Part shown: in pieces, positions 1 through 31,088 of the stretch
Layout: the number at the start of each line of letters is the position of its first letter
How positions within the stretch are numbered: position 1 is the stretch's first letter
Origin: Bradyrhizobium sp. SRL28
Lineage (GTDB): Bacteria; Pseudomonadota; Alphaproteobacteria; Rhizobiales; Xanthobacteraceae
Direction: 5' to 3'
Assembly (NCBI RefSeq): GCF_018596315.1
Contig: NZ_JAHEAG010000006.1
Coordinates: 1-64,000 of the forward strand
Length of the DNA: 64,000 bases
Made by a program: the position numbers and the translations under genes
The notes under the pieces: model-generated
Told to the model about the DNA's origin: nothing
What the model saw: the letters and a program-made list of their open reading frames with translations, nothing else
Databases searched by the model: none

Positions 1-10
1 ACATGCACAA

Positions 11-7468: not shown

Positions 7469-7527
7469 TGGTTACCGACTGCGATGAGACCCGCTAAGTT
7501 GGCAACTGGACAGAACCGGGGCGCGCG

Positions 7528-8235: not shown

Positions 8236-8248
8236 GAGGAGCTAGCTT

Positions 8249-8285: not shown

Positions 8286-8290
8286 GCTCG

Positions 8291-11026: not shown

Positions 11027-11256
11027 TGCGGGCGGCAAGCTACAAAATTTCTCCGCCCGGTCCTATTCCCTTACCCCCATTGTCAGAGTTTTCCACGCCC
11101 CACGCCGAATAATTGGTCACGCCCGCATGACGGGCATCCCGCCGGAGCACGACAGGAGTGGCAAGCCTCAATTGACCTGCCGCGGGCACGCTCCTAAAAC
11201 TCGCCAACAGTTCCAGCGGGTCAACGCCTAAAGCACGGCATTCAGGGAGAGATTCT

Positions 11257-12465
<1,209 letters not shown>

Positions 12466-12468
12466 AAC

Positions 12469-12568
12469 AACTATTTGGGAGGGCAAAAAACAGCGCTTCC
12501 CCAAATTAGTTATGTCATATAATGATCGGGCGGCGCGGCTTCGCGACAAAATTGCAAAAACAATTTTG
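12469..12568 (+). promoter_or_regulatory. Candidate regulatory leader of pcaH with two inverted repeats
   Basis: Between pcaF and pcaH, AACTATTTGGG (12469-12479) faces CCCAAATTAGTT (12500-12511), and CAAAATTG (12547-12554) faces CAATTTTG (12561-12568). The stretch is markedly AT-richer than its surroundings. It could hold an operator and promoter for pcaHG or a leader hairpin. A regulator cannot be named from sequence. Confidence 0.4.
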
Positions 12569-12600
12569 CGCTAGGGCGCAAGGCGAGGGAGGAATTCGTC

Positions 12601-13302: not shown

Positions 13303-13908
13303 GTGGAACAGGCCAAACCGGACGGTGTTACTCCGTCGCAGACCGTCGGCCCCTATTTCGCCTATGGGCTGACGCCGAACGGCAAATACGACTGGAACGA
13401 CACGTTCAGCAATAATCTCGTGACAGCGGATACCTCGGGCGAACGCATTCGCATCGAGGGACAAGTGTTCGATGGCGACGGCGAGGTCGTGCCGGATTGC
13501 ATGCTGGAGATCTGGCAGGCGGATGCCCAAGGGCGCTTCTCCGACCCGCAGGACAAACGGGCGCTGCCGAATACGTCATTCAAGGGCTTCGGCCGGATCG
13601 GTACCGATGCGAACGGCGGATTCGTCTTCAACACCATCAAGCCCGGGCAGGTCGCCGATCCCGACGGCAAGCCGCAGGCGCCGCATATCGTGCTCGCCGT
13701 GTTCGCGCGCGGCATGCTCTTGCACAATTATTCGCGGATCTATTTTGATGGCGAGGCGGCCAACGCCGCCGATCCAGTGCTGGCGCTGGTGCCGGCCGAC
13801 CGCCGCGCCACGCTGATCGCGACGCGGCAGCCGGGCAACGGCAACGCGGTCTATCGCTTCGACATCCACTTGCAGGGCGACAAAGAAACCGTGTTCTTCG
13901 ACGTGTAG
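13303..13908 (+). CDS. pcaG: Protocatechuate 3,4-dioxygenase, alpha subunit
   Basis: Structural subunit (201 residues) of the same dioxygenase. It shares the fold with PcaH (PSQTVGPYFAYGL at the N-terminus, then DGDGEVVPDCMLEIWQAD) but lacks the Tyr/His iron site, as expected: the region corresponding to RPAHIHF reads QAPHIVLAVFARG. The start is GTG at 13303, zero bases after the pcaH stop. Length is that of the family. Confidence 0.94.
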   Translation: MEQAKPDGVTPSQTVGPYFAYGLTPNGKYDWNDTFSNNLVTADTSGERIRIEGQVFDGDGEVVPDCMLEIWQADAQGRFSDPQDKRALPNTSFKGFGRIGTDANGGFVFNTIKPGQVADPDGKPQAPHIVLAVFARGMLLHNYSRIYFDGEAANAADPVLALVPADRRATLIATRQPGNGNAVYRFDIHLQGDKETVFFDV

Positions 13909-13930
13909 ACGCGGCCGCCGGGGGTGCGGA

Positions 13931-14824
13931 ATGATCATCGGGCGTCAGCAGGATGTCACGGTTACGGCCACTTCCGTGATGGAGCGGACGTCCGATCCGC
14001 GGTTGCGCGAGATCATGGTGTCGCTGGTCAAGCACCTGCACGGCTTCGTCCGCGACACCAGGCTGACTGAAGCGGAATTCCGCGAGGCCACTGCGATTCT
14101 CGCCGAAATGGGCCGTCAATCGACCGATACGCACAACGAAGTCGTGCTGATGGCGGGCTCGCTCGGCGTTTCCTCGCTGGTCTGCCTTCTGAACAATGGC
14201 GACCAGGGCAACACCGAGACGGCGCAATCATTGCTCGGGCCGTTCTGGCGATTGAATTCTCCCCGCGTCGAAAACGGCGGCTCGATCGTCCGGTCCGAAA
14301 CGCCGGGCGCGGCCCTCTTTGTCAACGCACGTGTCGTGGACCATGCCGGCAATCCGGTTGCCGGGGCGGAGGTGGATGTATGGCACACCTCACCGGTCGG
14401 CCTTTACGAGAACCAGGACCCCGAACAGGCGGAGATGAACCTGCGCGGCAAGTTCACGACCGATGCCGATGGTCGCTTCGCCTTTCGCTCGGTGATGATG
14501 GTCGGCTATCCGATCCCGACCGATGGCGTGGTCGGGCGGCTGTTGCAGGTGCAGGGCCGGCATCCTTACCGGCCGGCACATCTGCATGCGCTGATCTTCA
14601 AGCCGGGATTCAAGGTCCTGATCTCGCAGGTCTACGATCCCGCCGATCCGCACATTGACAGCGACGTGCAGTTTGGCGTGACCAAGGCGTTGATCGGCGA
14701 TTTCGTGCGTCATGACGAGCCGCATCCGACCGCCACGGATGTCCGCGCGCCCTGGTATTCGCTCGACCATGTCTACAGGATGGAGGCGGGCGAGGCCGTA
14801 TTGCCGCGCCCGCCGATCAAGTAG
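13931..14824 (+). CDS. Intradiol ring-cleavage dioxygenase, hydroxyquinol/catechol 1,2-dioxygenase type
   Basis: A 297-residue enzyme with the N-terminal helical dimerisation domain of catechol/hydroxyquinol 1,2-dioxygenases (residues about 15-105) and a C-terminal beta-sandwich. Iron ligands are visible: Tyr159 in GLYENQD, Tyr193 in VGYPIPTDG, and His217/His219 in YRPAHLHALIF. This differs from PcaHG, which lacks the helical domain. The start lies 22 bases after pcaG. The substrate is unknown; hydroxyquinol or a substituted catechol is the likely class. It may give this cluster a second ring-opening route. Confidence 0.85.
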   Translation: MIIGRQQDVTVTATSVMERTSDPRLREIMVSLVKHLHGFVRDTRLTEAEFREATAILAEMGRQSTDTHNEVVLMAGSLGVSSLVCLLNNGDQGNTETAQSLLGPFWRLNSPRVENGGSIVRSETPGAALFVNARVVDHAGNPVAGAEVDVWHTSPVGLYENQDPEQAEMNLRGKFTTDADGRFAFRSVMMVGYPIPTDGVVGRLLQVQGRHPYRPAHLHALIFKPGFKVLISQVYDPADPHIDSDVQFGVTKALIGDFVRHDEPHPTATDVRAPWYSLDHVYRMEAGEAVLPRPPIK

Positions 14825-14892
14825 GATTATCCAGATTCCCGGCGATGTCTGTCGCCGCCCCGCAAACGCCATTGGCGCCTGACGAGGTCATC

Positions 14893-15711
14893 ATGCCGTC
14901 GTTCTCCCTCGCCGCGCTGACCGTCCTCGAACTCGCGCCCCCTGCGTTGATCGACGTCGCCGCCGCCTGCGGCTATCAGCAGGTCGGGCTCCGGCTGCTG
15001 CCTGCCATGCAAGGCGGCGTTGCCTATCCGCTGATGGAAGACGAGGCCGGCCTGAAGGAGACCCTCGCCAGGCTGGATGCGACCGGCATCACCGTGGCTG
15101 ACCTCGAAGTGGTCGCGCTCCGGCCGGAAACCGAGATCGCCGCATTCTCTGCGTTTTTCGAGACGGGTGCGCGGCTCGGCGCCAAGCACATCCTGGTCGC
15201 CGCCTACGATCCCGACCTCGGCCGGCTCAGGGATCGCTATGCGGCCTTCTGCGAGGCCGCGGCCCCCTACGGATTGTCCGCCGACCTCGAATTCATGCCA
15301 TGGACGTCCGCTCCTGACCTTGCGACCGCGAGCAGCATTGTCGCGCAGGTAGATCAGCCAAATGCCGGCGTGCTGGTGGATGCGCTGCATTTCGACCGGT
15401 CGAGGAGTTCGATCGACGAACTCGCGCGCGTCCCCGCGCACCGGCTGCATTATTGGCAGATGTGCGACGCCCCCGCCGAGCGGCCCACCACGACGGAGGC
15501 CATGATCCATGCCGCCCGCCACGCGCGGATGTTTCCGGGCGAGGGCGGCATCGATCTCGTCTCGCTGACGCGCGCCATGCCGGCGGATATCACGGTCAGT
15601 ATCGAAGTCCCGACCGCCGAGCTTGCGAAGACGATGGATGCGAAGGCGCGGGCGCAGCGCGCGCTCATCGCCGCCAGGAATGTGATTGCCGGATCGCGCG
15701 ATGGTGCCTGA
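14893..15711 (+). CDS. TIM-barrel sugar-phosphate isomerase-like protein, candidate 3-dehydroshikimate dehydratase
   Basis: A 272-residue AP-endonuclease-2/xylose-isomerase-like barrel. Candidate metal ligands are Glu133 (DLEFMPW), Asp163 (LVDALHF), Gln189 (WQMCDA) and Glu238 (SIEVPT). Order and spacing nearly match the barrel half of the QuiC-type protein at 23483 (Glu135, Asp166, Gln192, Glu240), which suggests related chemistry. The start MPSFSLAAL is chosen because the same N-terminus recurs in a relic at 28947; an upstream in-frame ATG is at 14845. It sits directly after the dioxygenase genes. A dehydratase role is inference; an isomerase or epimerase is the alternative. Confidence 0.7.
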   Translation: MPSFSLAALTVLELAPPALIDVAAACGYQQVGLRLLPAMQGGVAYPLMEDEAGLKETLARLDATGITVADLEVVALRPETEIAAFSAFFETGARLGAKHILVAAYDPDLGRLRDRYAAFCEAAAPYGLSADLEFMPWTSAPDLATASSIVAQVDQPNAGVLVDALHFDRSRSSIDELARVPAHRLHYWQMCDAPAERPTTTEAMIHAARHARMFPGEGGIDLVSLTRAMPADITVSIEVPTAELAKTMDAKARAQRALIAARNVIAGSRDGA

Positions 15712-15813
15712 TCGTCAATTTCGAGGCAGCCAGAGATTTTCCTCCGGACTGGCCGGTGCGCCGATTGAAGATGATAGTATCTCGCAAGTTCATGCCCGGA
15801 GTTGCCGTACATG

Positions 15814-16767
15814 ATGACGCTTCGCCAGGTCGAGGTGATCCGCGCCGTGATGGTGACCGGCACGATCGGCGGGGCTGCGAGGCTTCTGAATGTGTCGGCT
15901 CCCGGCATCAGTCGGCTGGTGAAATACACCGAGAAGTCCCTGGGCGTCCGCTTCTTCCAGCGCCAGAACGGGCGCTATTTCCCGACGGCGGAAGCCCGCA
16001 ACATCTTCGAGCAGATCAACGGCGTCTACGAGAAGATGGATGATCTCACCGAGATCATCTCCAAGATCGGTCGCGGCGATCTGTCCGAGCTGCGTATCGG
16101 CTCAGTACCCAGCATCTCGCAGGTCATGGTGCCGCGCGCTATCGAGCGGGTGCGGCGCCGCTATCCCGAACTGCGGATTGACATCAACATCCTCAAGATC
16201 GAGGAGGCCGTCGATTATCTGCTGCTGGGCCGTGGCGATTGCGTCGCCATGAGTTACCGGCTCGAGCATCCCGGCCTCGATTTCCTGCCGCTGGCGTCGG
16301 GCGAGTTGTTCTGCATCGTGCCGGCAGGGCATGAGCTTGCCGGATGCAAGCAGGTCTCGGCCGCGGAGATCATCCGCTATCCGCTGATCGGCATCGATCC
16401 CAATGATCCCTATGGACGGATCATGGCGGAGATATTTGCGCGCAACAAACTCGACTACGACATCACCATCCGCGCGCGCTTCGGCACAACCGTGTGCGCG
16501 CTGGTCAAGGCCGGCCTCGGCATTGCCGTGATCGACCAGTTCACCGTCGCCCATGGCGGTTATCCCGGCGTCGAATTGCTCAGGATAGTCGAGCCGACCA
16601 GGTTCGACACTTACATTGCGGTGAAACGCGGTGCGCCGCTGTCGCTTCACATCGAGCATTTCATCGAATGTCTGCGCTCGGAAATGCGCGCCGTTGGACC
16701 GGGCAAGGCGGCGCCGCGAAAGCCCGATTCCAAGCCCCGCAAGGAAATAACGGCGCGCAAGAAATAA
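15814..16767 (+). CDS. LysR family transcriptional regulator
   Basis: Regulator of about 317 residues. The N-terminal winged helix-turn-helix covers TGTIGGAARLLNVSAPGISR, followed by the linker helix and the two-lobed effector domain (LRIGSVPSISQVMVPRAIE onward). The C-terminus is basic (KPDSKPRKEITARKK). LysR proteins usually sense a pathway intermediate, so it probably controls this quinate/protocatechuate region. A T-N11-A dyad overlaps its stop codon, just before the AroE-like gene. The start is uncertain among ATG codons at 15802, 15811 and 15814. Confidence 0.88.
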   Translation: MTLRQVEVIRAVMVTGTIGGAARLLNVSAPGISRLVKYTEKSLGVRFFQRQNGRYFPTAEARNIFEQINGVYEKMDDLTEIISKIGRGDLSELRIGSVPSISQVMVPRAIERVRRRYPELRIDINILKIEEAVDYLLLGRGDCVAMSYRLEHPGLDFLPLASGELFCIVPAGHELAGCKQVSAAEIIRYPLIGIDPNDPYGRIMAEIFARNKLDYDITIRARFGTTVCALVKAGLGIAVIDQFTVAHGGYPGVELLRIVEPTRFDTYIAVKRGAPLSLHIEHFIECLRSEMRAVGPGKAAPRKPDSKPRKEITARKK

Positions 16768-16778
16768 CATGATGTTAT
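16764..16778. promoter_or_regulatory. Perfect dyad with T-N11-A, candidate LysR-type operator
   Basis: ATAACAT-G-ATGTTAT is a perfect 7-1-7 palindrome. Counting from T16765 to A16777 gives the T-N11-A spacing known for LysR-type regulator sites. It overlaps the stop of the lysR gene and precedes the AroE-like gene by about 115 bases, a suitable place to control the downstream operon. Confidence 0.5.
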
Positions 16779-16893
16779 CTATCCGGCATAAATGGGTAAT
16801 TGTGTTAGGTCGGCAAAACGCTATCGTCTGGGCGGATCGGGGCGTATCTCGAACCGACCGCCGCCAACGCGCATTGGGACCGATGACGAGATC

Positions 16894-17784
16894 ATGAGCC
16901 CTGCCGCCCGACCGCTTGCTCCAGCCGACCGCCGCTTTCTCACCGGCCTGATCGGCGCGCCGATTGCCCATTCGGCGTCGCCGGCGATGCATGAGCGGGC
17001 CGCCGAAGCGCTCGGCGCGCATTGCCATTACCAACTGATCGAAGTGGCCGGCGCCGACCGCGAGGAATTGCGGCTGCTGCTCGACGGCGTGCGCCGTCTG
17101 GGCTTTGCAGGGGTCAACGTCACCTTTCCCTACAAGGAGGCGGTGGTCGCCCTGCTCGATGAATTGTCGCCGGGCGCGCAGGCGATCGGCGCGGTCAACA
17201 CCGTCGTGGTCCGCGATGGCCGGCTGATCGGACATAACACCGACACCACAGGATTTGCCCGGGCGATCACCGAGCTTGTCCGTGACCCCGCGCAGAGCAC
17301 CGTTGCCGTGATCGGCGCAGGCGGCGTCGGCAAGGCGATTACGTTTGCGCTGGCCGGGATCGGCGTCGCCGAGATCAGGATCTTCGACACCGACCGCGCC
17401 AAGGCTGCGCAACTCGCCAGCCAGATCGGGAAACGCGGCAAAACGAGTGTTGTCGGCAGCGTCGAGGACGCCATGAGCGGCGCCACCGGGATCGTCAACA
17501 GCTCGCCGGTCGGCATGTTGCCGAACCGCGGCACGCCGGTGCCGGATGCTCTGTTGCACAAGGATATATGGGTGGCCGACGCAGTCTACACGCCGCTCTG
17601 GACGCCGCTGTTGAACGCCGCAAAGGCTGAGGGTGCCGAGGTCATGACCGGGCGCGAGCTCGCGATTTATCAGGCCGCGGACGCATTCGAATTATTCACG
17701 GGACTGAAGCCATCGGCCGTCGAGATGGGAAATGCATTCGACGCCGTGATGGCCAGACGCTACGCTAAAGTGAACGCAGCCTAA
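16894..17784 (+). CDS. Shikimate/quinate dehydrogenase (AroE family, probably NAD-linked and catabolic)
   Basis: A 296-residue AroE-fold enzyme. Substrate-binding residues are seen in HSASPAMHE, catalytic Lys81 in NVTFPYK and Asp117 in HNTDTTG. The nucleotide motif GAGGVG is at 141-146. The second Rossmann strand ends in FDTD (Asp165), where NADP-using AroE normally has a basic NR(T/S) motif; an acidic residue there favours NAD. With the neighbours this fits quinate or shikimate oxidation rather than aromatic biosynthesis. The start at 16894 gives a normal AroE length. Confidence 0.85.
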   Translation: MSPAARPLAPADRRFLTGLIGAPIAHSASPAMHERAAEALGAHCHYQLIEVAGADREELRLLLDGVRRLGFAGVNVTFPYKEAVVALLDELSPGAQAIGAVNTVVVRDGRLIGHNTDTTGFARAITELVRDPAQSTVAVIGAGGVGKAITFALAGIGVAEIRIFDTDRAKAAQLASQIGKRGKTSVVGSVEDAMSGATGIVNSSPVGMLPNRGTPVPDALLHKDIWVADAVYTPLWTPLLNAAKAEGAEVMTGRELAIYQAADAFELFTGLKPSAVEMGNAFDAVMARRYAKVNAA

Positions 17785-17828
17785 AACGCGGCCGGTCACA
17801 AGGTCGCTTGTCGTAACGAGAAGAGGGG

Positions 17829-18971
17829 ATGGAAATGAGATCTGGAATTTTCGCAGGACTCCTGCTTGCCACCGTGTCGGCCGCAGCCGCATTCGCGCAA
17901 GGCGGCCCGATCAAGCTCGCCAATGTCGCCGAGCTGTCCGGCGGCGGCGCCACCGTCGGCACCAACTGGAAGAATGGCATCGATCTTGCGATCGAGGAGA
18001 TCAACGCCAAGGGCGGTGTTCTTGGCCGTAAGCTCGAAGTGACGCATGCGGATTCGCAGTCGAATCCCGGCGTCGCGCGTGCGCAGGTACAAAAGGCGCT
18101 CGACAATGAACCCTACGTCCTGCTCGGCCCCGGCTACTCCGGCTCCGTCAAGGTCACTTCGCCGCTCGCCGCCGAAGCCGGCATCGCGCAGATCATGGGC
18201 GGCGAGGCCGCTGAACTGACGCAGGGCGGCAACAAGTTCCTGTTCCGCACTTCGTTCGGCCAGCAATCCTCGATGCCGAAGGTCGCCAAATACATCAACG
18301 ACGAGCTGAAGGCGAAGTCGGTCGCGATCGTCTGGGTCAACAATGATTTCGGCAAGGGCGGCCGCGACGTCATCACCAAGGAATTCGCCAAGTACAACAT
18401 CAAGGTCGCGGCTGACATCTCGACCGAAGCGGGCCAGGCTGATTTCGCCGCCGACGTCAGCAAGATCAAGGCCGCGGCGCCCGATGCGGTGTTCGTCTAT
18501 GTCAACGAGGAAGAGAGCGCGCGGATGCTCAAGGAGCTGAAGCGCCAGGCAATCACCGTGCCGCTGATGGGCGAGACCACGCTGGTCGGCCAGAAGGTCG
18601 TCGAACTCGCCGGCGACGCGGCGAACGGCGCGCGCGGGCATGTCGGCCTGACCACCGATGCACCGGTCGATCTCGTCAAGGCGTTCCGCGAAAAGTTCCT
18701 CAAGAAGTACAATTACGTCCCCGACCATAACGGGCTGAAGGGTTATCTCGCGATCTACATGATCAAGGCCACCACCGAGAAGATGGGCAAGGTCGACGCC
18801 AAGGCGTTCGCCGACACTCTGCACGGCCTCACCATCAAGGCCGCCAGCGAGCCCGGCATCCTGATGGATGTGACCTTCGATGAGAAGGGTGACATCGACC
18901 GCCAGGGATTCCTGGTCGAGATCGTCGACGGCAAGCAGGTCGTCAAGCAGGTATTGCCGAAACTGAACTGA
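17829..18971 (+). CDS. ABC transporter substrate-binding protein, branched-chain amino acid (LivJ/K) type
   Basis: A 380-residue periplasmic binding protein with a signal peptide (MRSGIFAGLLL core, cleavage after AFA-Q). The body follows the Peripla_BP_6 pattern: IKLANVAELSGGGATVG near the start, then GIDLAIEEINAKGGVLGRKLE. Such proteins bind amino acids, but the family also imports aromatic acids in proteobacteria. Its position between the AroE-like gene and four importer genes, within a quinate/shikimate cluster, suggests a cyclic hydroxy acid ligand. Ligand identity is inference. A strong hairpin follows the gene. Confidence 0.88.
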   Translation: MEMRSGIFAGLLLATVSAAAAFAQGGPIKLANVAELSGGGATVGTNWKNGIDLAIEEINAKGGVLGRKLEVTHADSQSNPGVARAQVQKALDNEPYVLLGPGYSGSVKVTSPLAAEAGIAQIMGGEAAELTQGGNKFLFRTSFGQQSSMPKVAKYINDELKAKSVAIVWVNNDFGKGGRDVITKEFAKYNIKVAADISTEAGQADFAADVSKIKAAAPDAVFVYVNEEESARMLKELKRQAITVPLMGETTLVGQKVVELAGDAANGARGHVGLTTDAPVDLVKAFREKFLKKYNYVPDHNGLKGYLAIYMIKATTEKMGKVDAKAFADTLHGLTIKAASEPGILMDVTFDEKGDIDRQGFLVEIVDGKQVVKQVLPKLN

Positions 18972-18979
18972 GTCGCGAC

Positions 18980-19005
18980 GGGGCGTGCGCTTGAGCGCAC
19001 GCCCC
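18980..19005 (+). other. Perfect 11-bp hairpin after the binding-protein gene
   Basis: GGGGCGTGCGC and GCGCACGCCCC form a perfect GC-rich stem with the loop TTGA. There is no T-run after it, so it is more likely a 3'-end stabiliser or partial terminator. It would keep the binding-protein message more abundant than that of the downstream permeases. Confidence 0.7.
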
Positions 19006-19065
19006 CGAGATCAGCATGGTGAAAATGATTGACGCCGTCCGCATGTGACGGGTGAGGGGAGGAGC

Positions 19066-19941
19066 ATGTCCAATCTGCTCGATCTGCTGGTGGCAGGCCT
19101 TGCGACCGGGGCGATCTACGCCCTCGTTGCAGTCGGCTTCACGCTGCTGTGGCAGACATCGCAAACCATCAATTTCGCGCAGGGCGAATTCGTGATGCTG
19201 CCGGCATTCCTGATGCTGGCGGTGATGCATGTGGGCGCGCCATTCTGGCTCGCCATCCTCATCGGCATCCTGCTGTCGCTGCTGCTGCTGGGGCTCGGCT
19301 TCAAGCTGCTGCTGGTCGATCCGATGTTGCGGCACGGCGTGCTGCCGCTGGCGATTGCGACCATGGCGCTGGCGATCGGCATGAAGGAGGCGGTGAAGCA
19401 GTTCTTCAGCGCCGAAGCGTCGCCGTTCCCCTCCATCGTACCTGCCGGTGACGTTTCGATACTCGGCCGGGTGGTCTCGTTGCAGAGCCTTGGTGTGCTC
19501 GCACTCGCGATCGCGGTGGTGATCGGATTGACCATGCTCCTGAACCGCACGTCGATTGGCCACCAGATGCAGGCGACCGCGCAGAACCCGACAGTCGCCC
19601 GCATCATCGGCGTGCCGGTCGAACGCATGATCCTGATGACGTTCCTGATCAACGCGTTTCTGGTGGCGCTGGCCTCGTTGCTGATTACGCCGATCTATCT
19701 GGCGAAATTCTCCTCCGGTGAAGTGCTGGGGCAGGCCGCCTTCATCGCGGCGATCGTCGGCGGCTTCAACCAGGTGCGCGGCGCGATCGCCGGTGGCCTG
19801 TTGATCGGTGTGGTCGACAATCTGGCGGCCGCCTATGTGTCGACGCAGTACCGCGCCGCGGTGCCGCTGATCCTCCTGATCGTCATCATCCTGTTCCGGC
19901 CGCAGGGCCTGCTTGGTCGGCCCGAGGAGCGCACGGTATGA
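19066..19941 (+). CDS. ABC transporter permease, LivH type
   Basis: Inner-membrane permease of 291 residues with about eight hydrophobic segments. The LivH pattern is clear: LATGAIYALVAVGFTLLWQTSQTINFAQGEF at the N-terminus and LGQAAFIAAIVGGFNQVRGA near the C-terminus, ending in LLGRPEERTV. GGGGAGGAG stands before the ATG at 19066. The stop overlaps the LivM-type gene by four bases (ATGA). Confidence 0.9.
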   Translation: MSNLLDLLVAGLATGAIYALVAVGFTLLWQTSQTINFAQGEFVMLPAFLMLAVMHVGAPFWLAILIGILLSLLLLGLGFKLLLVDPMLRHGVLPLAIATMALAIGMKEAVKQFFSAEASPFPSIVPAGDVSILGRVVSLQSLGVLALAIAVVIGLTMLLNRTSIGHQMQATAQNPTVARIIGVPVERMILMTFLINAFLVALASLLITPIYLAKFSSGEVLGQAAFIAAIVGGFNQVRGAIAGGLLIGVVDNLAAAYVSTQYRAAVPLILLIVIILFRPQGLLGRPEERTV

Positions 19942-20939
19942 CCGCCACCGGGAAATATCTGCGTATCGGGCTCGGCGTCGCCGTCATCGCGGCCCTGATC
20001 ATCGTGCCGATGAACTTCAACCGCTACGGCCTCTACATCCTGAGCCAGTGGGCTGTCATGACGATCGCCGCGATGGGGCTCAATCTGACGCTCGGCTATG
20101 CAGGCCAGGTTTCGCTGGCGCAGGGCGCGTTCGTCGGCATCGGGGCCTATGCAGCGGCGATCATGACCACGCAGGGCGGCATGCCGCTGATTGCGGCGCT
20201 CGGCGTCGCCATTGTGCTGTGCTTTGCGATTGGCTGGATTCTGGGTTATCCGGCGCTGCGCGTGCAGCATCACTATCTTGCCTTCGTGACGCTGGCGTTC
20301 TCGACACTCGCGTTCCTGGTGTTCCGCAACGAGGACTGGCTCACCAAGGGTATCTACGGCATATCAAACATTCCGCGGCCCAATGTCATGGGCTTCGCCA
20401 CCAACCGGCCGCTGCCGTTCTATTACTTCTGTCTCGGCTCGCTCGGCATCGTCTCGCTGGCGATGTGGTGGCTGATCCGCTCGCCCTGGGGCCGCGCCTT
20501 CGTGGCGCTGCGCGAAAATCCGGTGCGGGCGCTATCGCTCGGCATCGACACGCGGCGCTATACGCTGATGGCGTTTGCGATCGGGTCGGCGCTTGGCGGC
20601 GTCGCCGGCACGCTCTATGCGCCGCTGACGCAATATATCGATCCGGTTCCCTTCAACCTCTCGCTCTCGCTCGATCTGTTGATGATGGTGATCGTCGGCG
20701 GTTCCGGATTCTTCTTCGGGCCGTTCCTCGGCGCGATGATTGCGGTGCTGCTGCCGGAGTGGCTGCGCTTCACGCAGGGCTATTACCTGATGCTCTACGC
20801 GGTGGCTGTGATGCTGCTCCTGATCTATTCGCCGACCGGCATCCTCGGCATCCTCGACCGCTATCTGACCGAGCGCCGCACCAAGGCGGCATCCGCGCTG
20901 CGCGCGGTGGCGAAATCCAGACTGGAGACGGCGCCATGA
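19938..20939 (+). CDS. ABC transporter permease, LivM type
   Basis: Second permease subunit, 333 residues, with about ten membrane segments. LivM features include NLTLGYAGQVSLAQGAFVGIGAYAAA and the cytoplasmic loop GRAFVALRENPVRALSLGID that contacts the ATPases. It overlaps the upstream LivH and downstream LivG-type genes by four bases each, so translation is coupled through the operon. Confidence 0.9.
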   Translation: MTATGKYLRIGLGVAVIAALIIVPMNFNRYGLYILSQWAVMTIAAMGLNLTLGYAGQVSLAQGAFVGIGAYAAAIMTTQGGMPLIAALGVAIVLCFAIGWILGYPALRVQHHYLAFVTLAFSTLAFLVFRNEDWLTKGIYGISNIPRPNVMGFATNRPLPFYYFCLGSLGIVSLAMWWLIRSPWGRAFVALRENPVRALSLGIDTRRYTLMAFAIGSALGGVAGTLYAPLTQYIDPVPFNLSLSLDLLMMVIVGGSGFFFGPFLGAMIAVLLPEWLRFTQGYYLMLYAVAVMLLLIYSPTGILGILDRYLTERRTKAASALRAVAKSRLETAP

Positions 20940-23486: not shown

Positions 23487-25354
23487 ACAAGCGCTCGATC
23501 GCCACGGTTTCGCTCAGCGGCGCCCTCGACGAAAAGCTCCGCGCCATCGCCGCCGCCGGCTTCGACGCCGTCGAGATCTTCGAGAACGATCTGCTGTCGT
23601 TCAGCGGCAGCCCGCGCGACGTCGGCCAGATGTGCCGGGATCTCGGGCTTTCGATCTGCGCTTTCCAGCCGTTCCGTGACTTCGAGGGCATGCCGGAGCC
23701 GCAGCGCACCCGCAACTTTGCGCGCGCCGAGCGCAAGTTCGACCTGATGCAGGAGCTGCAGACCGATCTGATGCTGATCTGCAGCAATATTTCGCCGGCC
23801 TCGCTCGGCGGTATCGACCGCGCGGCTGCCGATTTCCGTGAACTGGGCGAACGTGCCGCCGCGCGGGGCTTGCGCGTCGGCTATGAGGCGCTCGCCTGGG
23901 GACGCCACGTCAACGATTATCGCGACGCCTGGGAGATCGTGCGTCGCGCCGACCACAAATCGATCGGCATCATTCTAGACAGTTTTCACGCGCTGGCGCC
24001 GTCGTTTCCGACGATGCCGATTCAATCGATCCCGGCCGACAAGATCTTTCTGGTGCAACTGGCCGACGCGCCGAAACTCGGCCTCGACGTGCTGTCCTGG
24101 AGCCGGCACTTCCGCTGCTTCCCGGGCCAGGGCGACCTCCCGGTCGCGCCGTTCGTGGAAGCTGTGCTCGCCACCGGCTATGCGGGCCCGCTGTCGCTGG
24201 AAATATTCAACGACCAGTTTCGCGCCGGCTCCGCGGTCCGAACCGCGACCGATGGGCTGCGCTCGCTCATCCTGCTCGAGGATGACGTCCGCGGCGCGGC
24301 GGCGGGCGCGCCTGCGAGGCCGCTGCAGCCGAAGGCGAAGAGCCGCGGCGTCGGCTTCATCGAATTCGCCGTCAGCGAAGAGAAAGCCCGCGACCTCGCC
24401 GCGCTGTTCGGCCAGCTCGGTTTTCGCAAAACCGGCGCGCATCGCAGCAAGGACGTCGAACGCTGGTCGCAGGGCCAAATCGATCTCGTGATCAATTGCG
24501 AGCCTGATGGCTTCGCGCATTCGCACTTTGTCGCGCACGGTCCCGGTGTCTGCGCCATCGCCGTTGATGTGGATGACGCCGCCAGGACCATGGCGCGCGC
24601 GGAGGCGCTGCAGGCGCGGACCTTCTACCAGCCCGTCGGGCCGGGCGAACTCGAAATTCCGGCGATCCGCGGCGTTGGCGGCAGCCTGCTGTATTTCCTG
24701 GAAGAGGCCGGAAAGAACTGGGACCTCGATTTCGAGGCGCTGCGCAGCAATGCGGCCGGCGATCGGCTCGATGCGGTCGACCATATCTCGCAGTCGATGC
24801 CCTATGACGAGATGCTGTCGTGGCTGTTGTTCTACACCGGCATTCTCGATCTGGAACGCCTGCCGCAGATGGAGATCGCGGACCCGGTTGGCCTCGTGCA
24901 GAGCCAGGCGCTGATCAACGGCAGCGAAAACCTGCGCGTGGTGCTCAACGGCTCGTCGGCGACGCGCACGCTGTCGGCCCGCTTCATCCACGAATTCTTC
25001 GGCTCCGGCGTCCAGCATGTCGCGTTCTCCTGCCGCGATATCTTCGCGGCGGTCGCCGACATGCGCGCGCGCGGCGCGGACTTCCTCAGGATTCCCGACA
25101 ATTACTACGACGACATCGAAGCCAAATATGGTCTCGACGCCGACATGATGGCCGCGCTTCGCCACAACCAGATTCTCTACGACCGCGAAGGCGAGGGCGA
25201 ATTCTTCCAGGTCTACACGCACGCGTTCGACGAGCGGTTCTTCTTCGAGATCGTCGAGCGCCGTGACTATCACGGCTTCGGCGCCGCCAACGCCGCGATC
25301 AGGCTGGCGGCCCAGACCAGGGAATCGCGGCCACTGACGATGCCTAAGGCGTGA
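23483..25354 (+). CDS. quiC: 3-dehydroshikimate dehydratase fused to HPPD-like VOC domain
   Basis: A 623-residue two-domain protein. Residues 1-270 form an isomerase-like TIM barrel with metal ligands Glu135, Asp166, Gln192 and Glu240. This matches the pattern known for Pseudomonas QuiC1, which turns 3-dehydroshikimate into protocatechuate. Residues 288-610 are two vicinal-oxygen-chelate modules like 4-hydroxyphenylpyruvate dioxygenase, with the facial triad apparently kept: His434 (VDHISQS), His512 (VQHVAFS) and Glu589 (FFFEIVER). The start ATG overlaps the upstream stop by four bases. The product feeds pcaHG. Confidence 0.9.
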   Translation: MNKRSIATVSLSGALDEKLRAIAAAGFDAVEIFENDLLSFSGSPRDVGQMCRDLGLSICAFQPFRDFEGMPEPQRTRNFARAERKFDLMQELQTDLMLICSNISPASLGGIDRAAADFRELGERAAARGLRVGYEALAWGRHVNDYRDAWEIVRRADHKSIGIILDSFHALAPSFPTMPIQSIPADKIFLVQLADAPKLGLDVLSWSRHFRCFPGQGDLPVAPFVEAVLATGYAGPLSLEIFNDQFRAGSAVRTATDGLRSLILLEDDVRGAAAGAPARPLQPKAKSRGVGFIEFAVSEEKARDLAALFGQLGFRKTGAHRSKDVERWSQGQIDLVINCEPDGFAHSHFVAHGPGVCAIAVDVDDAARTMARAEALQARTFYQPVGPGELEIPAIRGVGGSLLYFLEEAGKNWDLDFEALRSNAAGDRLDAVDHISQSMPYDEMLSWLLFYTGILDLERLPQMEIADPVGLVQSQALINGSENLRVVLNGSSATRTLSARFIHEFFGSGVQHVAFSCRDIFAAVADMRARGADFLRIPDNYYDDIEAKYGLDADMMAALRHNQILYDREGEGEFFQVYTHAFDERFFFEIVERRDYHGFGAANAAIRLAAQTRESRPLTMPKA

Positions 25355-25398
25355 CTATTCGGAACGGAAACAAGAAGACTGAAAAGGGGAGCGAGACG

Positions 25399-27228
25399 AT
25401 GCCGATCATGAAGAGGAAGAGTATTGGTGCGGCATTGCTGCTCGCCGCCTGCGGGTATCTGACGCCGGCGCTGGCCGATACGCTGCCTTGCGATGACGGC
25501 ATCAAGACAGCCTTTCGCCCGGACGCCGACACGTCGGTCGTCGCGGTTCGGCTGGTGAAGAAGGGCGAGGAACTAAAGGCGCCTGATGCGCAACAGCCCA
25601 TCACGGCGGCGGCTGATCTGTGCCTCGTGAAGCTGCTGGTCGGCCCCGGCGCCACGGCGGAAAAGGACAAGAATGCGCGGTCGTATTCCGAAGGTATCGG
25701 CATCGAGGTCTGGCTGCCGACGCATGCCAACTGGAACGAGCGTATACGCAACTATGGCGGTGGTGGATGGGTCGGCGGCGGTCATCGCTATGCCGACAAG
25801 ATCGGCAGCAAGGTGCCGACCATCGTCAACGCCAATATCGGCTACGCGTCGGGCACGACGGATGCGGGCCAGCCCTGGTATCAGGATGGCTCGTTCGCGT
25901 TTCTGTCCGATGGCAAGGTCAACGTGGAATCGCTTCGCGATTTCTCCGTGCGAGCCATGGTGGAACAGGCCGTCAAAACCAAAGCGCTGGTCAACCTCTA
26001 TTACGGCAAGGCGCCGAAATACGCCTACTACGACGGCCATTCGCAGGGCGGCCGGCAGGGCATGAAGCTCGTGCAGGAGCATCCCGAACTGTACGACGGC
26101 TACATGATCGCCCAGCCGGCGCTGAGCATCGCGAAATTCGGAACGGCGGGCCTCTATCCCCAGATCGTGATGAAAACCGAACTCGGCTTCACGTCGGTGG
26201 ACAAGCCGAAGGCCGCAGCCTTCGCCGCCAAAATCGCCGCCGCCAACAAGCGCGCGGTTGCCGCTTGCGACAAGGCGGGCCTCGGCTTCCTGCTCGATCC
26301 CTTTGCCTGCGACTATAATCCCGCGCGCGATGCCGAGGCGCTATGCGCAGGCGAAGCCGGCGAGGGTGTCACCGGAAATAATGCCGATGTCGCGACCTGC
26401 ATGAGCCTGAAGGAGGCGAATGCATTGAACCGGATCTGGTACGGCGCCACCAGCGACGGGAGTTTCGATGCCGTGCAGGGCGCTGAGGCGCGATCCGGTA
26501 AATTGCTCGGCAAGAACCAGCTTTGGTGGACGTTCACCAAGAGCACCGCCATCGGCAACCTGATCACCAGCGCCTCTTCCTATGGCGTCGCCTTGGCACT
26601 GCAGGATATCAGCTACGCCCCCGACGCCAGCACGGCGTCAGGCGAGCCGATCACGAACGGTTCGACGAATACACGCAATAAATGGCTTGAACTCGATTAT
26701 GCCGGCCTCGCCGACGCCGTGAACAAGGGCGTCGCGTTGCAGCCGACGCTGTTCAGCGACCTCATCACGGACAAGGCGGATCTTGGCAAGCTGCGCGAGC
26801 TCGGCCGCAAGGTCATCGTCCATACGGGCCTGGTCGACGATGCGATCCCGCCCGCCGGCAACATCAACTATCACGAGCGTGTGGTGGCAGCGATGGGCGG
26901 GCATACCGAGGTGCAGAAATTCATGCGGATGTATCTGCTGCCGGGTTCGGCGCACTCTTCGCAAGGCCGGGCCTACACGGTCGGTGGCAAGAACGACACC
27001 GTGCCGCTGCCGAAACTGCCCGGCAACGCCAACCAGAATCCGACGCGCGAGCAGGATCAGTTCTTCACCGCGCTGGTGGATTGGGTCGAGAAGGGCACAG
27101 CACCGGGCGAGATCATGCTGACCTCACGCGACAACGGCGTCAGCTATCCCGTCTGCGTCTATCCGCTGCGGACGACGTGGAACGGCAATGGGGATGCAAA
27201 GCAGGCGTCGAGCTATAGCTGCCGGTAG
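25399..27228 (+). CDS. Tannase / feruloyl esterase family protein, exported
   Basis: A 609-residue ester hydrolase with a signal peptide. The serine nucleophile Ser215 lies in YYDGHSQGGRQG; candidates for the remaining triad are the Asp in HTGLVDDAIPP and the His in GSAHSSQGRA. Tannases and feruloyl esterases split gallate or hydroxycinnamate esters such as galloyl- or caffeoylquinate. A LAAC lipobox-like string at residues 15-18 allows lipoprotein anchoring as an alternative to cleavage after ALA. GGGGAG before 25399 favours that ATG; a GTG at 25351 overlaps the quiC stop. Confidence 0.85.
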   Translation: MPIMKRKSIGAALLLAACGYLTPALADTLPCDDGIKTAFRPDADTSVVAVRLVKKGEELKAPDAQQPITAAADLCLVKLLVGPGATAEKDKNARSYSEGIGIEVWLPTHANWNERIRNYGGGGWVGGGHRYADKIGSKVPTIVNANIGYASGTTDAGQPWYQDGSFAFLSDGKVNVESLRDFSVRAMVEQAVKTKALVNLYYGKAPKYAYYDGHSQGGRQGMKLVQEHPELYDGYMIAQPALSIAKFGTAGLYPQIVMKTELGFTSVDKPKAAAFAAKIAAANKRAVAACDKAGLGFLLDPFACDYNPARDAEALCAGEAGEGVTGNNADVATCMSLKEANALNRIWYGATSDGSFDAVQGAEARSGKLLGKNQLWWTFTKSTAIGNLITSASSYGVALALQDISYAPDASTASGEPITNGSTNTRNKWLELDYAGLADAVNKGVALQPTLFSDLITDKADLGKLRELGRKVIVHTGLVDDAIPPAGNINYHERVVAAMGGHTEVQKFMRMYLLPGSAHSSQGRAYTVGGKNDTVPLPKLPGNANQNPTREQDQFFTALVDWVEKGTAPGEIMLTSRDNGVSYPVCVYPLRTTWNGNGDAKQASSYSCR

Positions 27229-27234: not shown

Positions 27235-28947
27235 TTGCGCCGCCCACGATTGTCCGAGGTCTCGCCCGGTTACGACGTCGTCGTGATCGGCGCGGGGGCC
27301 GCCGGCATGTCGGCGGCGCTTTTTTCCGCCATTCGAGGCGCGAAAACGCTGCTGGTCGAGAAGACTGAATTCGTCGGCGGTACCTCCGCGCTGTCGGCGG
27401 GATCGATCTGGATACCCAATACGCATCATGCATCGGCCACCGGGGCGGCCGATAGCGCGGCGAACGTCGAAAAATATCTGCAGCAGATCGTCGGAAACCA
27501 TGCCGACGTTGCGCTGCGCGCGGCTTTCCTGAAGGCGGGTCCCGCGGCAGTCGAGGTTCTGGAAAATCGCTCCGAAGTTAAATTGCGGGCCTATGTTCGT
27601 CATCCCGACTATCGCTCGGAGCTTGAGGGCGCGGCGCTGGCCGGGCGCGCGCTGGAGCCGTTACCGTTCGACGGGCGGTTGCTTGGCGAGGCGTTCAGGC
27701 TGGTTCGTTCGCCGCTACCGGAGTTCACGCTACTTGGCGGGATGATGGTCGACAGGACCGATATCGGTCATCTCTTGTCATCGGCGAGGTCCGTCAGATC
27801 GTTGTGGCACGCCGCCAGGCTCGTTGCGCGTTACGCGCGCGACAAGGCGAGCCATGGCAGGGGCACACGGCTCGTGATGGGTAACGCGCTGGTTGGCCGG
27901 CTTCTGTATTCATTGATGCGTCAGGGTGTGGACATCCTGACGGGTGTATCGCTCGCGAAGATTATCCGGAAGCCTGACGGTGCCGTTACGGCGGCGAGTT
28001 TGATCTCGGAGGGAGTATCGCGCGAGATCGGCGTCAAGGCCGCGCTGATTCTGGCGGGAGGCGGTTTCAACCGCCATGCCGAACGGCGTCACGCGGCGCT
28101 CGGAACTGAAGCTGGCTGGTCGTCTGTTGCGCCGGGCTCGATCGGTGATGCGCAGGACAAGGCCCTCGAGATCGGTGCGCGGCTCAGCGAGCGCGATGCC
28201 AGCGCTGCCTTCTGGGCACCCGCATCGATCCGGCGGCGGCGCGACGGATCACAGGCGGTCTTTCCGCATTTCGTGCTCGACCGTGCCAAACCGGGGACGC
28301 TGGTTGTCGACAGCAACGCGCGTCGGTTCGTCAACGAAGCGATCTCCTATCACCAGTTTGCGCTGGAGATGTTGGCGAAGGGAAAATCGGCCATTCCGGC
28401 GTTTCTGATCGCGGATGCGGTTTCAGTTCGGAAGTACGGTCTTGGCATGGTTCGGCCTGGTGGCTGGGGCGCCAGAGCTGCTGTCGCCGACGGCTATCTC
28501 AGCGCCGCCGACACCGTCGAGCAGCTTGCGCTGCGGTTGAACATCGATCCCAGTCAATTGCGCGAGACGGTCGACAAGATGAACCTGTATGCGCAAACCG
28601 GTCGAGATCCCGAATTCGGCAGGGGAAGCACGGTGTATCAAAATCACAACGGCGATGCGTCTGCAGGCGGGGCCAATCCCAACCTTGGCCGCATCGCGAA
28701 GGCTCCCTTCTACGCGGTCCGGCTTTATCCTTCCGATATCGGCACCTCGTCCGGACTTGTCACGGACGAGGTTGCCCGCGTTTTCGATGCCGGAAATCAG
28801 CCGATTGTCGGCCTCTACGCTTGCGGAAATGACATGCAGTCGATCATGGGCGGAACCTATCCCGGACCGGGGATCACGCTCGGACCGGCGATCGCGTTTG
28901 CCTATATCGCCGTGTCGGATGCCGCTCGGCGCGTGGGCCTCGAATGA
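27235..28947 (+). CDS. FAD-dependent oxidoreductase (FAD_binding_2 family)
   Basis: A flavoprotein of about 570 residues. The N-terminal dinucleotide motif VVVIGAGAAGMSAALFS is followed by LLVEK and GGTSALSAGSIW, and the C-terminal FAD segment is GGTYPGPGITLGPAIAF. The fold is that of fumarate reductase/3-ketosteroid delta-1-dehydrogenase relatives. The start is uncertain: a TTG at 27235 lies six bases after the esterase stop and a TTG at 27250 is also in frame. Its position suggests oxidation of a product of the esterase or quinate route. The substrate is unknown. Confidence 0.82.
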   Translation: MRRPRLSEVSPGYDVVVIGAGAAGMSAALFSAIRGAKTLLVEKTEFVGGTSALSAGSIWIPNTHHASATGAADSAANVEKYLQQIVGNHADVALRAAFLKAGPAAVEVLENRSEVKLRAYVRHPDYRSELEGAALAGRALEPLPFDGRLLGEAFRLVRSPLPEFTLLGGMMVDRTDIGHLLSSARSVRSLWHAARLVARYARDKASHGRGTRLVMGNALVGRLLYSLMRQGVDILTGVSLAKIIRKPDGAVTAASLISEGVSREIGVKAALILAGGGFNRHAERRHAALGTEAGWSSVAPGSIGDAQDKALEIGARLSERDASAAFWAPASIRRRRDGSQAVFPHFVLDRAKPGTLVVDSNARRFVNEAISYHQFALEMLAKGKSAIPAFLIADAVSVRKYGLGMVRPGGWGARAAVADGYLSAADTVEQLALRLNIDPSQLRETVDKMNLYAQTGRDPEFGRGSTVYQNHNGDASAGGANPNLGRIAKAPFYAVRLYPSDIGTSSGLVTDEVARVFDAGNQPIVGLYACGNDMQSIMGGTYPGPGITLGPAIAFAYIAVSDAARRVGLE

Positions 28948-29102
28948 TGCCGTCGTTTTCGCTTGCCGCGCTTGCCGCGCTCGAACTTGCACCACCCGAA
29001 TTGATCCACATCGCCGCCGCATCTATCCCGTCTGCGTCTATCCGCTGCGCACGACGTGGACGGCGGAGATGCAAGCAGACCGCGAGCTATGGCTGCCAGT
29101 AA
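28944..29102 (+). pseudogene. Chimeric gene relic: start of a TIM-barrel gene joined to the end of a second tannase gene
   Basis: An open frame of 52 codons begins MMPSFSLAALAALELAPPEL, closely matching the N-terminus of the barrel protein at 14893. After about 26 codons homology switches to the 3' end of the tannase gene: bases 29024-29049 are identical to 27145-27170. There the tannase tail YPVCVYPLRTTW is read in another frame; after a five-base gap the frames merge and the relic ends CKQTASYGCQ, like the tannase end KQASSYSCR. The middle of both ancestral genes is gone. It overlaps the FAD gene stop by four bases. Confidence 0.72.
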
Positions 29103-29152
29103 ATCGGCCGGATAAGATGTGCCATCGGCAGGGCGCCAACACCGGATTGCAC

Positions 29153-30076
29153 ATGATCGAACCCAAGGAAGCCGCCAGCAAGGCGCGCGAAATGCTGGGC
29201 CTGCTTGGCTTCCTGCTGGTTGCCACCGCCCAGGTCTCCAACATGATCCTGGCGCGTGGTGTCGCCGGGAGCGTCCCGCCGTTCTCGATCGCGTTCTTTC
29301 GCTGGAGCATCGTGGCGCTCGGCCTGCTGCCGGCCGTCGTGATGGCGCTGCGGGAAAAGCCCGGCGTGTTGCACGGGCAGACGTTCGGCATCGCCGCGGC
29401 TGGTTTTCTCGGCATGTTCATCTGCGGCGGCCCGGTCTATGTCGCCGGCGTTACGACGTCGGCGATCAACCTGGCGCTGATCATGGCGCTCTCGCCGCTC
29501 GTGGTGTTGCTGTTTTCCTTCATATCAGGTCAGGAAGCCATCCATCGAAGCCAGATCATCGGCATGCTGCTCTCGTTGGCGGGCGCCGCGTTGATCATTA
29601 TGATGGGGCGAGGCGCTATTGGTTCAGGCGTGGCGATCGGAGATATTCTCGCACTGATGGCGATGCTGGGCTGGGCGGGGTACACCTTGCTGCAGAACCG
29701 TGTGGGCACCGGCATAAGCTTTCTGGCGCGGATCGGCCTGTTCGCTGCGGCAGGCGCGCTGTTCTCGCTGCCCTTCGCCATCCATGAAATGTGGTCTGCG
29801 CCTGCCGCCGCGTTCAGCGGCCGTGCAGCGCTGGTCTATCTGTTCGCAGGCTTGGTGCCCGGGCTTTTCGCCTATTCGGCCTATGCCTATCTCGGCGCGA
29901 AGTTCGGCGCGGTGTCGACGTCCCTGAGCCTCTATCTCGGGCCGATCGTCAGCGCGGTGCTGTCGATCCTCTTTCTCGGAGAGGCGCCGACCGTGATCCA
30001 TCTGATCGGTGGCGCGCTGTCGCTCGGCGGAATGTGGTTGAGCCTGCAGGCCAAGCAGAGCGCGTCACGACCCTAA
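29153..30076 (+). CDS. EamA/DMT family transporter
   Basis: A 307-residue membrane protein with ten hydrophobic segments in two EamA repeats (ATAQVSNMILARGVAGSVPP in the first half; AIGDILALMAMLGWAGYTLLQNR at the start of the second). Members move small metabolites, usually outward. Start candidates are ATG at 29117 and at 29153; the first lies just after the chimeric relic. It may export an aromatic intermediate, but nothing in the sequence fixes the substrate. Confidence 0.85.
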   Translation: MIEPKEAASKAREMLGLLGFLLVATAQVSNMILARGVAGSVPPFSIAFFRWSIVALGLLPAVVMALREKPGVLHGQTFGIAAAGFLGMFICGGPVYVAGVTTSAINLALIMALSPLVVLLFSFISGQEAIHRSQIIGMLLSLAGAALIIMMGRGAIGSGVAIGDILALMAMLGWAGYTLLQNRVGTGISFLARIGLFAAAGALFSLPFAIHEMWSAPAAAFSGRAALVYLFAGLVPGLFAYSAYAYLGAKFGAVSTSLSLYLGPIVSAVLSILFLGEAPTVIHLIGGALSLGGMWLSLQAKQSASRP

Positions 30077-30230
30077 CGCGACGTCGGCTGCCCCGACATT
30101 TATCAAGGCATCTTCGCGCTCGATGCGCACATCGCGGATTTTCACCTGACGAGTCGCTCTCCTATCGCGCCGTTTCGTGTGGCCCGCCGTGGCCGGGGTA
30201 GCCCTGGCATCGACTTGACAATAAATGCCC

Positions 30231-30273: not shown

Positions 30274-30597
30274 ATGTCAAGCCTCGATGCCGCCTTTTCC
30301 GCGCTGGCTGACCCAACCCGTCGGGCGATCCTGGCGCGTCTCGCGTTGGGCGAGGCCACCGTCATGGAGCTGGCCGAGCCGTTCGAGATGACGCAACCCG
30401 CCATCTCCCGACACCTCAAGGTGCTCGAAGGCGCCGGTCTCATCCTCCGGCGTGTCGAAGGCACCAAGCGGCCGTGCCGGCTGGCGCCGACGGCCGTCGC
30501 CGAGATCGACCAATGGCTCGGGATGCTGCGCCAGACCCTGAGCGCGAACTACAACCGGTTGGACGACGTTCTGGCCGCCATGAGAACCGAAGAGTGA
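30274..30597 (+). CDS. ArsR family transcriptional regulator
   Basis: A 107-residue winged helix-turn-helix protein (ALADPTRRAILARLALGEAT, then FEMTQPAISRHLKVLEGAGL as recognition region). It has no metal-binding cysteines, placing it in the non-metal group often paired with an AHSA1/SRPBCC gene. That partner follows 11 bases later. A perfect dyad lies directly upstream, so autoregulation is likely. Confidence 0.92.
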   Translation: MSSLDAAFSALADPTRRAILARLALGEATVMELAEPFEMTQPAISRHLKVLEGAGLILRRVEGTKRPCRLAPTAVAEIDQWLGMLRQTLSANYNRLDDVLAAMRTEE

Positions 30598-30608
30598 AAG
30601 GCAGTCCG

Positions 30609-31088
30609 ATGAGCAAGTTGACGCTTAAGACCGAAGGCGACACCCACGTCGTCGTTACCAGGCACTTCGCCGCCACGCCGGAGGCGGTGTATCGGGCGCA
30701 CACCGATCCGGCGCTGATCCAGAAGTGGCTGCTCGGTCCGGAGGGCTGGACGATGCCGGTCTGCATCAACGAGGCGCGCCCCGGCGGCAAGATCCGGTAC
30801 GAATGGAGCGACGGCAAGGGAGGCGGCTTCTACCTGACCGGAGAGTTTATCGAGACGGTGCCGTTCAGCCGGCTCGTTCACGTGGAACGGATGCATCTGC
30901 CCGACCCGACACCGGACAATCATGTCGAAACGAATTTTGCCCCCGACGGCACCGGCACGCTGATGACTATGCGGATGACGCTGCCTGATGCAGCGACGCG
31001 TGCCACGATGCTGGCGACCGGCATGGAAGATGGAATGGAAGCGAGCTACGCGCGGCTTGACGCACTTTCCTTGCCCGCGCGGCCGTAA
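30609..31088 (+). CDS. SRPBCC (AHSA1/START-like) domain protein
   Basis: A 159-residue helix-grip-fold protein. The N-terminal strand VVTRHFAATPEAVYRAHTDP and the segment LIQKWLLGPEGWTM are typical of AHSA1 (activator of Hsp90-like) proteins in bacteria. Members bind hydrophobic ligands. It is translated from ATG 30609 just after the ArsR gene, forming a two-gene operon. The exact role is unknown. Confidence 0.88.
   Translation: MSKLTLKTEGDTHVVVTRHFAATPEAVYRAHTDPALIQKWLLGPEGWTMPVCINEARPGGKIRYEWSDGKGGGFYLTGEFIETVPFSRLVHVERMHLPDPTPDNHVETNFAPDGTGTLMTMRMTLPDAATRATMLATGMEDGMEASYARLDALSLPARP

What the first reader, a model, noticed from the sequence alone, without database searches (positions are those of the whole stretch)
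28944..29102. Chimeric gene relic fusing the start of one catabolic gene to the end of another
The first half matches the N-terminus of the barrel protein at 14893 (MPSFSLAAL...LELAPP). The second half matches the tannase gene end: 29024-29049 equals 27145-27170 over 26 bases, then a five-base gap shifts the frame. This implies that a second barrel gene and a second tannase gene once lay here, and that a deletion joined them.
Basis: seen in the sequence. Interest (0 to 1): 0.6.

Follow-up and report, generated by a model that had tools for sequence, protein, structure and literature searches.

The report
Recombination scar joining two gene ends
A 159-base stretch in a Bradyrhizobium genome is most likely a dead join between the start of one catabolic gene and the displaced tail of the neighbouring tannase gene, left behind when a foreign piece of DNA was spliced in; it is a fossil of gene exchange rather than a working gene.

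Summary
In detail: 28944-29019 matches the start of the barrel gene at 14893 (77 bp, 79%, E 5e-14) and 29020-29101 the tannase 3' end (87 bp, 85%, E 2e-20). A close FAD gene occurs in 9 of 265 genus genomes, in all 9 right after tannase. Five of the 9 have a barrel gene directly after FAD, 4 of them with a full-length ORF, so a second barrel gene at this spot is real. A second tannase is not: each of the 9 has one tannase match and at most an 87-bp tail downstream. Between G004 and its FAD-less sister G005, the insert is flanked by a 58-bp duplication of the tannase end. In G141 the tail carries a variant of its FAD-less clade-mates' tannase. The tail is best read as the resident tannase end, displaced when FAD plus barrel DNA came in. 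G141 shares the join, G191 nearly so; the frame beyond it is not conserved. So: a dead scar, probably homologous on the tannase side and illegitimate on the other. Whether the barrel gene was cut on entry or deleted later is open.

The parts
28944..29019 (+). first 76 bp of a second xylose-isomerase-like barrel gene (truncated)
   Evidence: 79% to 14890-14966; 95-96% to the start of the barrel gene directly after FAD in G207, G257, G232
29020..29101 (+). displaced 3' end of the tannase gene
   Evidence: 85% to 27141-27227; the sequence after its stop resembles the tannase-DMT spacer of FAD-less genomes (10 of 74 different from G091; 44 of 71 from the DNA after this genome's own intact tannase)
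28944..29102 (+). 52-codon chimeric open frame, judged non-functional
   Evidence: frames diverge after the join in G141 (50 aa) and G191 (56 aa)
25351..27228 (+). intact tannase gene (Pfam PF07519), the only match at E <= 1e-20 in the genome
27235..28947 (+). FAD-dependent oxidoreductase gene, the incoming gene next to the scar
   Evidence: Pfam PF00890, NCBIfam NF009477 above its cut-off; a close copy (89% or more) in 9 of 265 genus genomes, this one included
29153..30076 (+). EamA/DMT transporter gene, right flank
   Evidence: Pfam PF00892
14845..15711 (+). intact first barrel gene beside the dioxygenase genes (paralogue of the relic)
   Evidence: Pfam PF01261
30080..30136 (+). probable second gene-end relic: residues 197-215 of a 217-aa protein of unknown family
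   Evidence: 19 residues, 79%, tblastn E 0.002 in a search of 39 stretches run up to E 10; reading frame

Best explanation
The stretch is the right-hand junction scar of a horizontally acquired segment. Shown: a close FAD gene follows tannase in only 9 of 265 genomes, the tannase tail before DMT is a partial second copy of the tannase end, and the barrel fragment is the beginning of a gene that follows FAD in relatives. Inferred: incoming DNA carrying tannase end, FAD and barrel gene paired with the resident tannase gene by homology on the left, while on the right the barrel DNA, after about 76 bp, was joined without useful homology to the resident tannase gene about 82 bp before its stop. That keeps one whole tannase gene, adds FAD, leaves a truncated barrel gene, and pushes the old tannase end downstream as a scar in front of DMT. 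Later spread between species went by ordinary homologous exchange through the tannase and DMT genes. The 52-codon frame is a by-product. The confidence given is for 'displaced-end junction scar', whether the barrel gene was cut on entry or deleted afterwards; for the one-step entry alone I would say about 0.5.
For: Gene order in 20 stretches and 18 more, picked because they matched the locus or FAD: 9 genomes without the close FAD gene have tannase directly before DMT (G005, G091, G210, G234, G065, G062, G235, G237, G159). G004 against its sister G005: 1-9123 pairs with 938-10014 and 11708-20000 with 9957-18230, so 58 bp of the tannase end is matched twice, around a 2584-bp insert. The last 1.5 kb of tannase before the insert is 95-100% alike per 100 bp (its first 300 bp only 76-95%). 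In G004 the first 600 bp of DMT are nearer to G207 (543/588) than to sister G005 (531/599), while bases 601-900 are nearer to G005 (290/300 against 257/288): the segment was brought in with part of DMT. The motif TGGAATGGCAACGGAGAyGC occurs in G141's scar and in the tannase ends of its rpoB clade-mates G091, G065 and G062, and in no other of the 39 stretches scanned. One tannase match per genome in 13 of 13 genomes examined, the 9 FAD-bearing among them. FAD of the 9 forms one clade while the tannase gene of G141 groups with its rpoB clade-mates. Codons 3-24 of the barrel piece: 5 synonymous and 10 amino-acid changes in 3 relics against 17 and 6 in 7 other copies (Fisher p 0.02), or 17 and 1 in the 5 of them directly after FAD (p 0.0005).
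Against: In the window itself no exchange boundary is visible in the identity profile, and its tail is hardly nearer to FAD-less genomes (10 of 83 from G005 and G065) than to its own tannase (12 of 83); the case rests mainly on G004 and G141. The spacer after the tail would also be native if a whole second tannase had once stood there. G191's join is 6 bp shorter and its FAD end and barrel start are of the other subtype (with G004, G160), so G191 could be a separate event or a conversion (by eye). The barrel gene after DMT in G191 and G182 shows further rearrangement that one event does not explain. The codon counts are small, the rows are related, the consensus was made from the seven non-relic copies (which favours them), one of those seven (G257) is broken further on, and the two copies in the downstream position show only amino-acid changes (0 and 2; 0 and 3).
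Confidence: 0.82

Rival explanations
1. Two steps: FAD plus a complete barrel gene were inserted before the displaced tannase end, then an internal deletion removed most of the barrel gene and joined its start to the tail. (This is a sub-case of the displaced-end scar; it differs in when the barrel gene was cut.)
For: G207, G257 and G004 show FAD, barrel gene, short spacer, tannase tail, DMT; one of these barrel genes (G257) is already broken, ORF 45 aa instead of 269, so the gene decays here.
Against: The tail in those three is about 50-58 bp, shorter than the 82-87 bp in the window and G141, so the window cannot descend from exactly that junction.
Confidence: 0.38
2. One reading: a complete second tannase gene (for instance the resident copy after single-crossover integration) stood between barrel gene and DMT, and one deletion fused the two.
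For: The tail is followed by a tannase-DMT spacer like that of FAD-less genomes.
Against: 0 of 9 genomes with the close FAD gene keeps more than an 87-bp tail; one tannase match each. G190 and G009, which have neither FAD nor a tannase gene in the 20-kb stretch read, also keep a short tail before DMT, so short tails can arise without a second gene.
Confidence: 0.1
3. The 52-codon frame is a small working gene, translationally coupled to FAD.
For: Open frame with its ATG overlapping the FAD stop; a frame of similar length is open in G141 and G191.
Against: After the join the three peptides differ by frame; the relics are rich in amino-acid changes; G182 lacks the barrel start and half of the tail.
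Confidence: 0.03
4. Transposon or site-specific element with a target duplication.
For: Direct duplication of 58 bp around the insert in G004.
Against: The 2584-bp insert in G004 is filled by FAD (1.7 kb) and the barrel gene (0.8 kb), with no room for an integrase or transposase; the length of the second tannase tail differs between genomes (about 45 to 87 bp).
Confidence: 0.03

Closest known systems
Homology-facilitated illegitimate recombination (named for Streptococcus pneumoniae, Acinetobacter and Pseudomonas stutzeri in PMC2884548, passages and section 14 read; rare in E. coli conjugation, PMC3240628, abstract and section list seen)
   Same: One side of the gained segment joins in long shared sequence (tannase), the other side joins without useful homology, at different points in different lineages.
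   Different: Seen only as old footprints; later changes and exchanges have blurred it, and DNA uptake in this organism was not tested.
Small variable segments of bacterial genomes (PMC2884548, passages and section 14 read)
   Same: A kb-sized variable segment between conserved neighbours, with a flanking gene end altered; later spread through flanking homology.
   Different: That study compares strains within species (E. coli, S. aureus, S. pyogenes); this is between species of one genus.
Ordinary gene-fragment pseudogenes (general knowledge)
   Same: Truncated, frame-broken gene ends, apparently with relaxed coding constraint.
   Different: Two gene ends of different origin joined in a single open frame.

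Membership tests
Homology-facilitated illegitimate recombination footprint | One junction in extended homology | tested here: met
   In G004 against G005: last 1.5 kb of tannase 95-100% alike up to the insert; for the window itself inferred
Homology-facilitated illegitimate recombination footprint | Other junction with little or no homology | tested here: met
   Barrel start and tannase end share no more than a base or two at the join, read by eye, with the parent sequences inferred from relatives
Homology-facilitated illegitimate recombination footprint | Both junctions made in one uptake event | not testable with these tools
   Only descendants are seen
Gene relic (pseudogene) | Frame not conserved | tested here: met
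   52, 50 and 56 codons, different frames after the join
Gene relic (pseudogene) | Relaxed coding constraint | tested here: inconclusive
   5 synonymous and 10 amino-acid changes against 17 and 6 in the 7 other copies, p 0.02; few sites, related rows, consensus made from the 7
Deletion fusion of two whole genes | A relative keeps both genes intact at this place | tested here: not met
   Barrel gene yes (5 of 9, 4 full length), second tannase no (0 of 9)
Transposon or integrative element | Mobility gene and fixed ends | tested here: not met
   G004's insert is filled by FAD and barrel gene; tail lengths differ between genomes

The most novel reading that the evidence does not exclude
The interval between the tannase gene and the arsR gene is a repeated docking place where pieces of a quinate/shikimate module (FAD, dehydroquinase, a 217-aa unknown, barrel gene, shikimate dehydrogenase) enter by one-sided homology, so that each entry leaves a recognisable chimeric scar in front of DMT; independent scars (window with G141, possibly G191, and G207/G257/G004) would make this a natural record of homology-facilitated illegitimate recombination in rhizobia.
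Probability: 0.4. Interest if true: 0.5.

Novelty: new member of a known kind. Interest (0 to 1): 0.3.

Why it matters
The scar itself probably does nothing, but it records how catabolic genes are added next to conserved neighbours without a visible mobile element. In G141 the tail carries clade-specific variants that tell resident from incoming DNA, and the 9 genomes give a small natural series of junctions. It also warns that a 'second gene' inferred from a gene-end fragment may be only the displaced end of the one gene still present.

Tried and rejected
A first rpoB tree was discarded because loci lay on mixed strands; it was rebuilt with one orientation (quick method, SH-aLRT support only). 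The promoter scan gave no site in the scar; its one site lies inside DMT and was not pursued. A control element before DMT as the reason why tails of 45-87 bp are kept remains a guess. The rpoB tree holds 29 of the 265 genomes, chosen because they matched the locus or the FAD gene; of 30 handles searched, G229 (partial gene) was left out and G065 entered with its larger piece only. In some searches the search scored two candidates per genome, and the match list is cut, so rarer or weaker copies may be missed. The label 'ArsR' in the tables is the AHSA1-type ORF 30474-31088 next to arsR (30274-30597). The label 'EthD-like' in my notes was recalled; no family matched that protein. Literature listings (10, 10, 1 and 8 papers listed) showed no paper on this locus; apart from PMC2884548 and PMC3240628 I saw only listings and starts of abstracts.

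Full report
What is there. The window lies in contig C219 of a 9.65-Mb genome. Relatives that the genome search puts in the same genus include records named Bradyrhizobium: equal contig lengths identify G207 with Bradyrhizobium sp. CSA112, G004 with B. algeriense RST91, G160 with sp. AUGA SZCCT0283, G257 with B. valentinum LmjM3 and G182 with sp. 190. At 28944-29102 a 52-codon frame joins the first 76 bp of a barrel gene to the last 82 bp of a tannase gene; both matches are far above chance (E 5e-14 and 2e-20; next best 0.013), and no other place in the genome matches at E <= 0.001 (40 of 54 candidates scored). The neighbourhood looks like a quinate/shikimate/protocatechuate region: tannase, FAD oxidoreductase, a fused barrel-HPPD protein, shikimate dehydrogenase, protocatechuate dioxygenase.

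Relatives. A search of 265 genomes of the genus with 28850-29200 found two others with the whole chimera, G141 (85%) and G191 (83%); others match only the left part (FAD end and barrel start) or only the right part (tannase end and DMT start). A close FAD gene is found in 9 of 265 genomes including this one (the other 8 at 89-93%); 8 more have a distant one (77-79%). In all 9 it follows tannase. Of the 9, G207, G257 and G004 have FAD, barrel gene, tannase tail, DMT; G232 and G160 have FAD and barrel gene without DMT; the window, G141 and G191 have the chimera; G182 has lost the barrel start and part of the tail. The barrel ORF after FAD is full length (269 aa) in G207, G232, G004, G160 and broken in G257. 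G191 and G182 carry an intact barrel gene beyond DMT. Among the stretches without the close FAD gene that I read, 9 genomes have tannase directly before DMT; others lack DMT (such as G010) or tannase (such as G190, G009, G050, G163) there. These stretches were picked by their match, so they are not a random sample.

The tannase piece. Each of 13 genomes tested, all 9 with the close FAD gene among them, has one tannase match at E <= 1e-20. In sisters G004 (with FAD) and G005 (without), the alignment shows a 2584-bp insert flanked by a 58-bp duplication of the tannase end; the last 1.5 kb of tannase before it is 95-100% alike. DMT of G004 is nearer to G207 in its first 600 bp and nearer to G005 after that, so the segment came in by exchange that ended inside DMT. 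In G141 the scar carries a variant that among 39 stretches occurs otherwise only in the tannase ends of G091, G065 and G062, its relatives in the rpoB tree, and not in its own intact tannase end. After the tail's stop, G141 differs from G062 in 4 of 75 positions and from the DNA behind its own intact tannase in 46 of 73; for the window, 10 of 74 from G091 and 44 of 71. Within the tail itself the window is not decisive: 10 of 83 from G005 and G065, 12 of 83 from its own tannase, and its identity profile shows no boundary. Taken together the tail is best read as the resident tannase end. A whole second tannase is not needed and not seen, though a short-lived one cannot be excluded.

The barrel piece. 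It is 95-96% identical to the start of the barrel gene after FAD in G207, G257 and G232, against 79% to the window's other barrel gene. Beyond the join the frames differ: 52, 50 and 56 codons in the window, G141 and G191. In codons 3-24 the three relics have 5 synonymous and 10 amino-acid changes from the consensus of seven other copies; those seven together have 17 and 6, the five directly after FAD 17 and 1. The consensus was made from the seven, one of them (G257) is broken further on, and the rows are related, so this is only indicative.

The join. Window and G141 share it apart from one substitution; G191's is 6 bp shorter. By eye, the window's and G141's FAD end and barrel start are of one subtype (with G207, G257, G232), G191's of another (with G004, G160). 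One old event with later exchange, or two events, are both possible. The rpoB tree (29 genomes) places the window and G191 as sisters and G141 in a clade of four whose other three lack FAD; the FAD tree does not follow it, so FAD moved between lineages.

How it most likely arose. Homology on the tannase side and a join without homology on the other would in one step give a whole tannase, FAD, a cut-off barrel gene and a displaced tannase end. This process, homology-facilitated illegitimate recombination, is described in naturally competent bacteria (PMC2884548 section 14; PMC3240628 abstract). The alternative, insertion of a whole barrel gene and later deletion, is nearly as likely; the observed intact arrangements have a tail of about 50-58 bp, shorter than the window's 82 bp, so they are not its direct parent.

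Wider picture. In the distant relatives G225 and G226 the order is FAD, type II dehydroquinase, a 217-aa unknown, barrel gene; G173 has the same order with about 3.8 kb between FAD and dehydroquinase; G118, G227, G228 and G229 have FAD, dehydroquinase and the 217-aa gene without a detected barrel gene; G097 has FAD, 217-aa gene and barrel gene without a detected dehydroquinase. Fragments of the 217-aa gene lie between DMT and arsR: 19 residues near its end in the window (30080-30136, E 0.002) and similar pieces in G141, G234, G005 and G004 (E 0.002-0.04, each weak alone but at the same place); its first 49 codons in G191 and G182, next to a piece of the shikimate dehydrogenase end. The interval has thus been rearranged repeatedly. 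I rate the finding real, explained in its main lines, and of modest interest.

Noticed in passing
window 30080-30136: A probable second gene-end relic between DMT and arsR: 19 residues near the end of a 217-aa protein of unknown family that in G225 and G226 lies between dehydroquinase and barrel gene (79%, E 0.002); similar pieces at the same place in G141, G234, G005 and G004.
   Followed up: partly
L035 about 7506-7850 and L036 about 7550-7897: In G191 and G182 the DNA between DMT and the downstream barrel gene is a patchwork: DMT end, shikimate dehydrogenase end, first 49 codons and apparently the end of the 217-aa gene.
   Followed up: partly
L046 (G190) near 9985-10049 and L049 (G009) near 10028-10078: These two stretches hold no tannase gene but keep a tannase tail of about 50-65 bp just before DMT; perhaps that DNA helps to express DMT.
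   Followed up: no
L039 about 11100-11900 (G257, B. valentinum): The barrel gene after FAD is broken (ORF 45 aa instead of 269), an independent decay of the same gene.
   Followed up: no
G062, G232, G207, G005 tannase genes: The protein search reports one stop read through in each of these four of 13 genomes; it may lie before the true start or be a real break, not checked.
   Followed up: no
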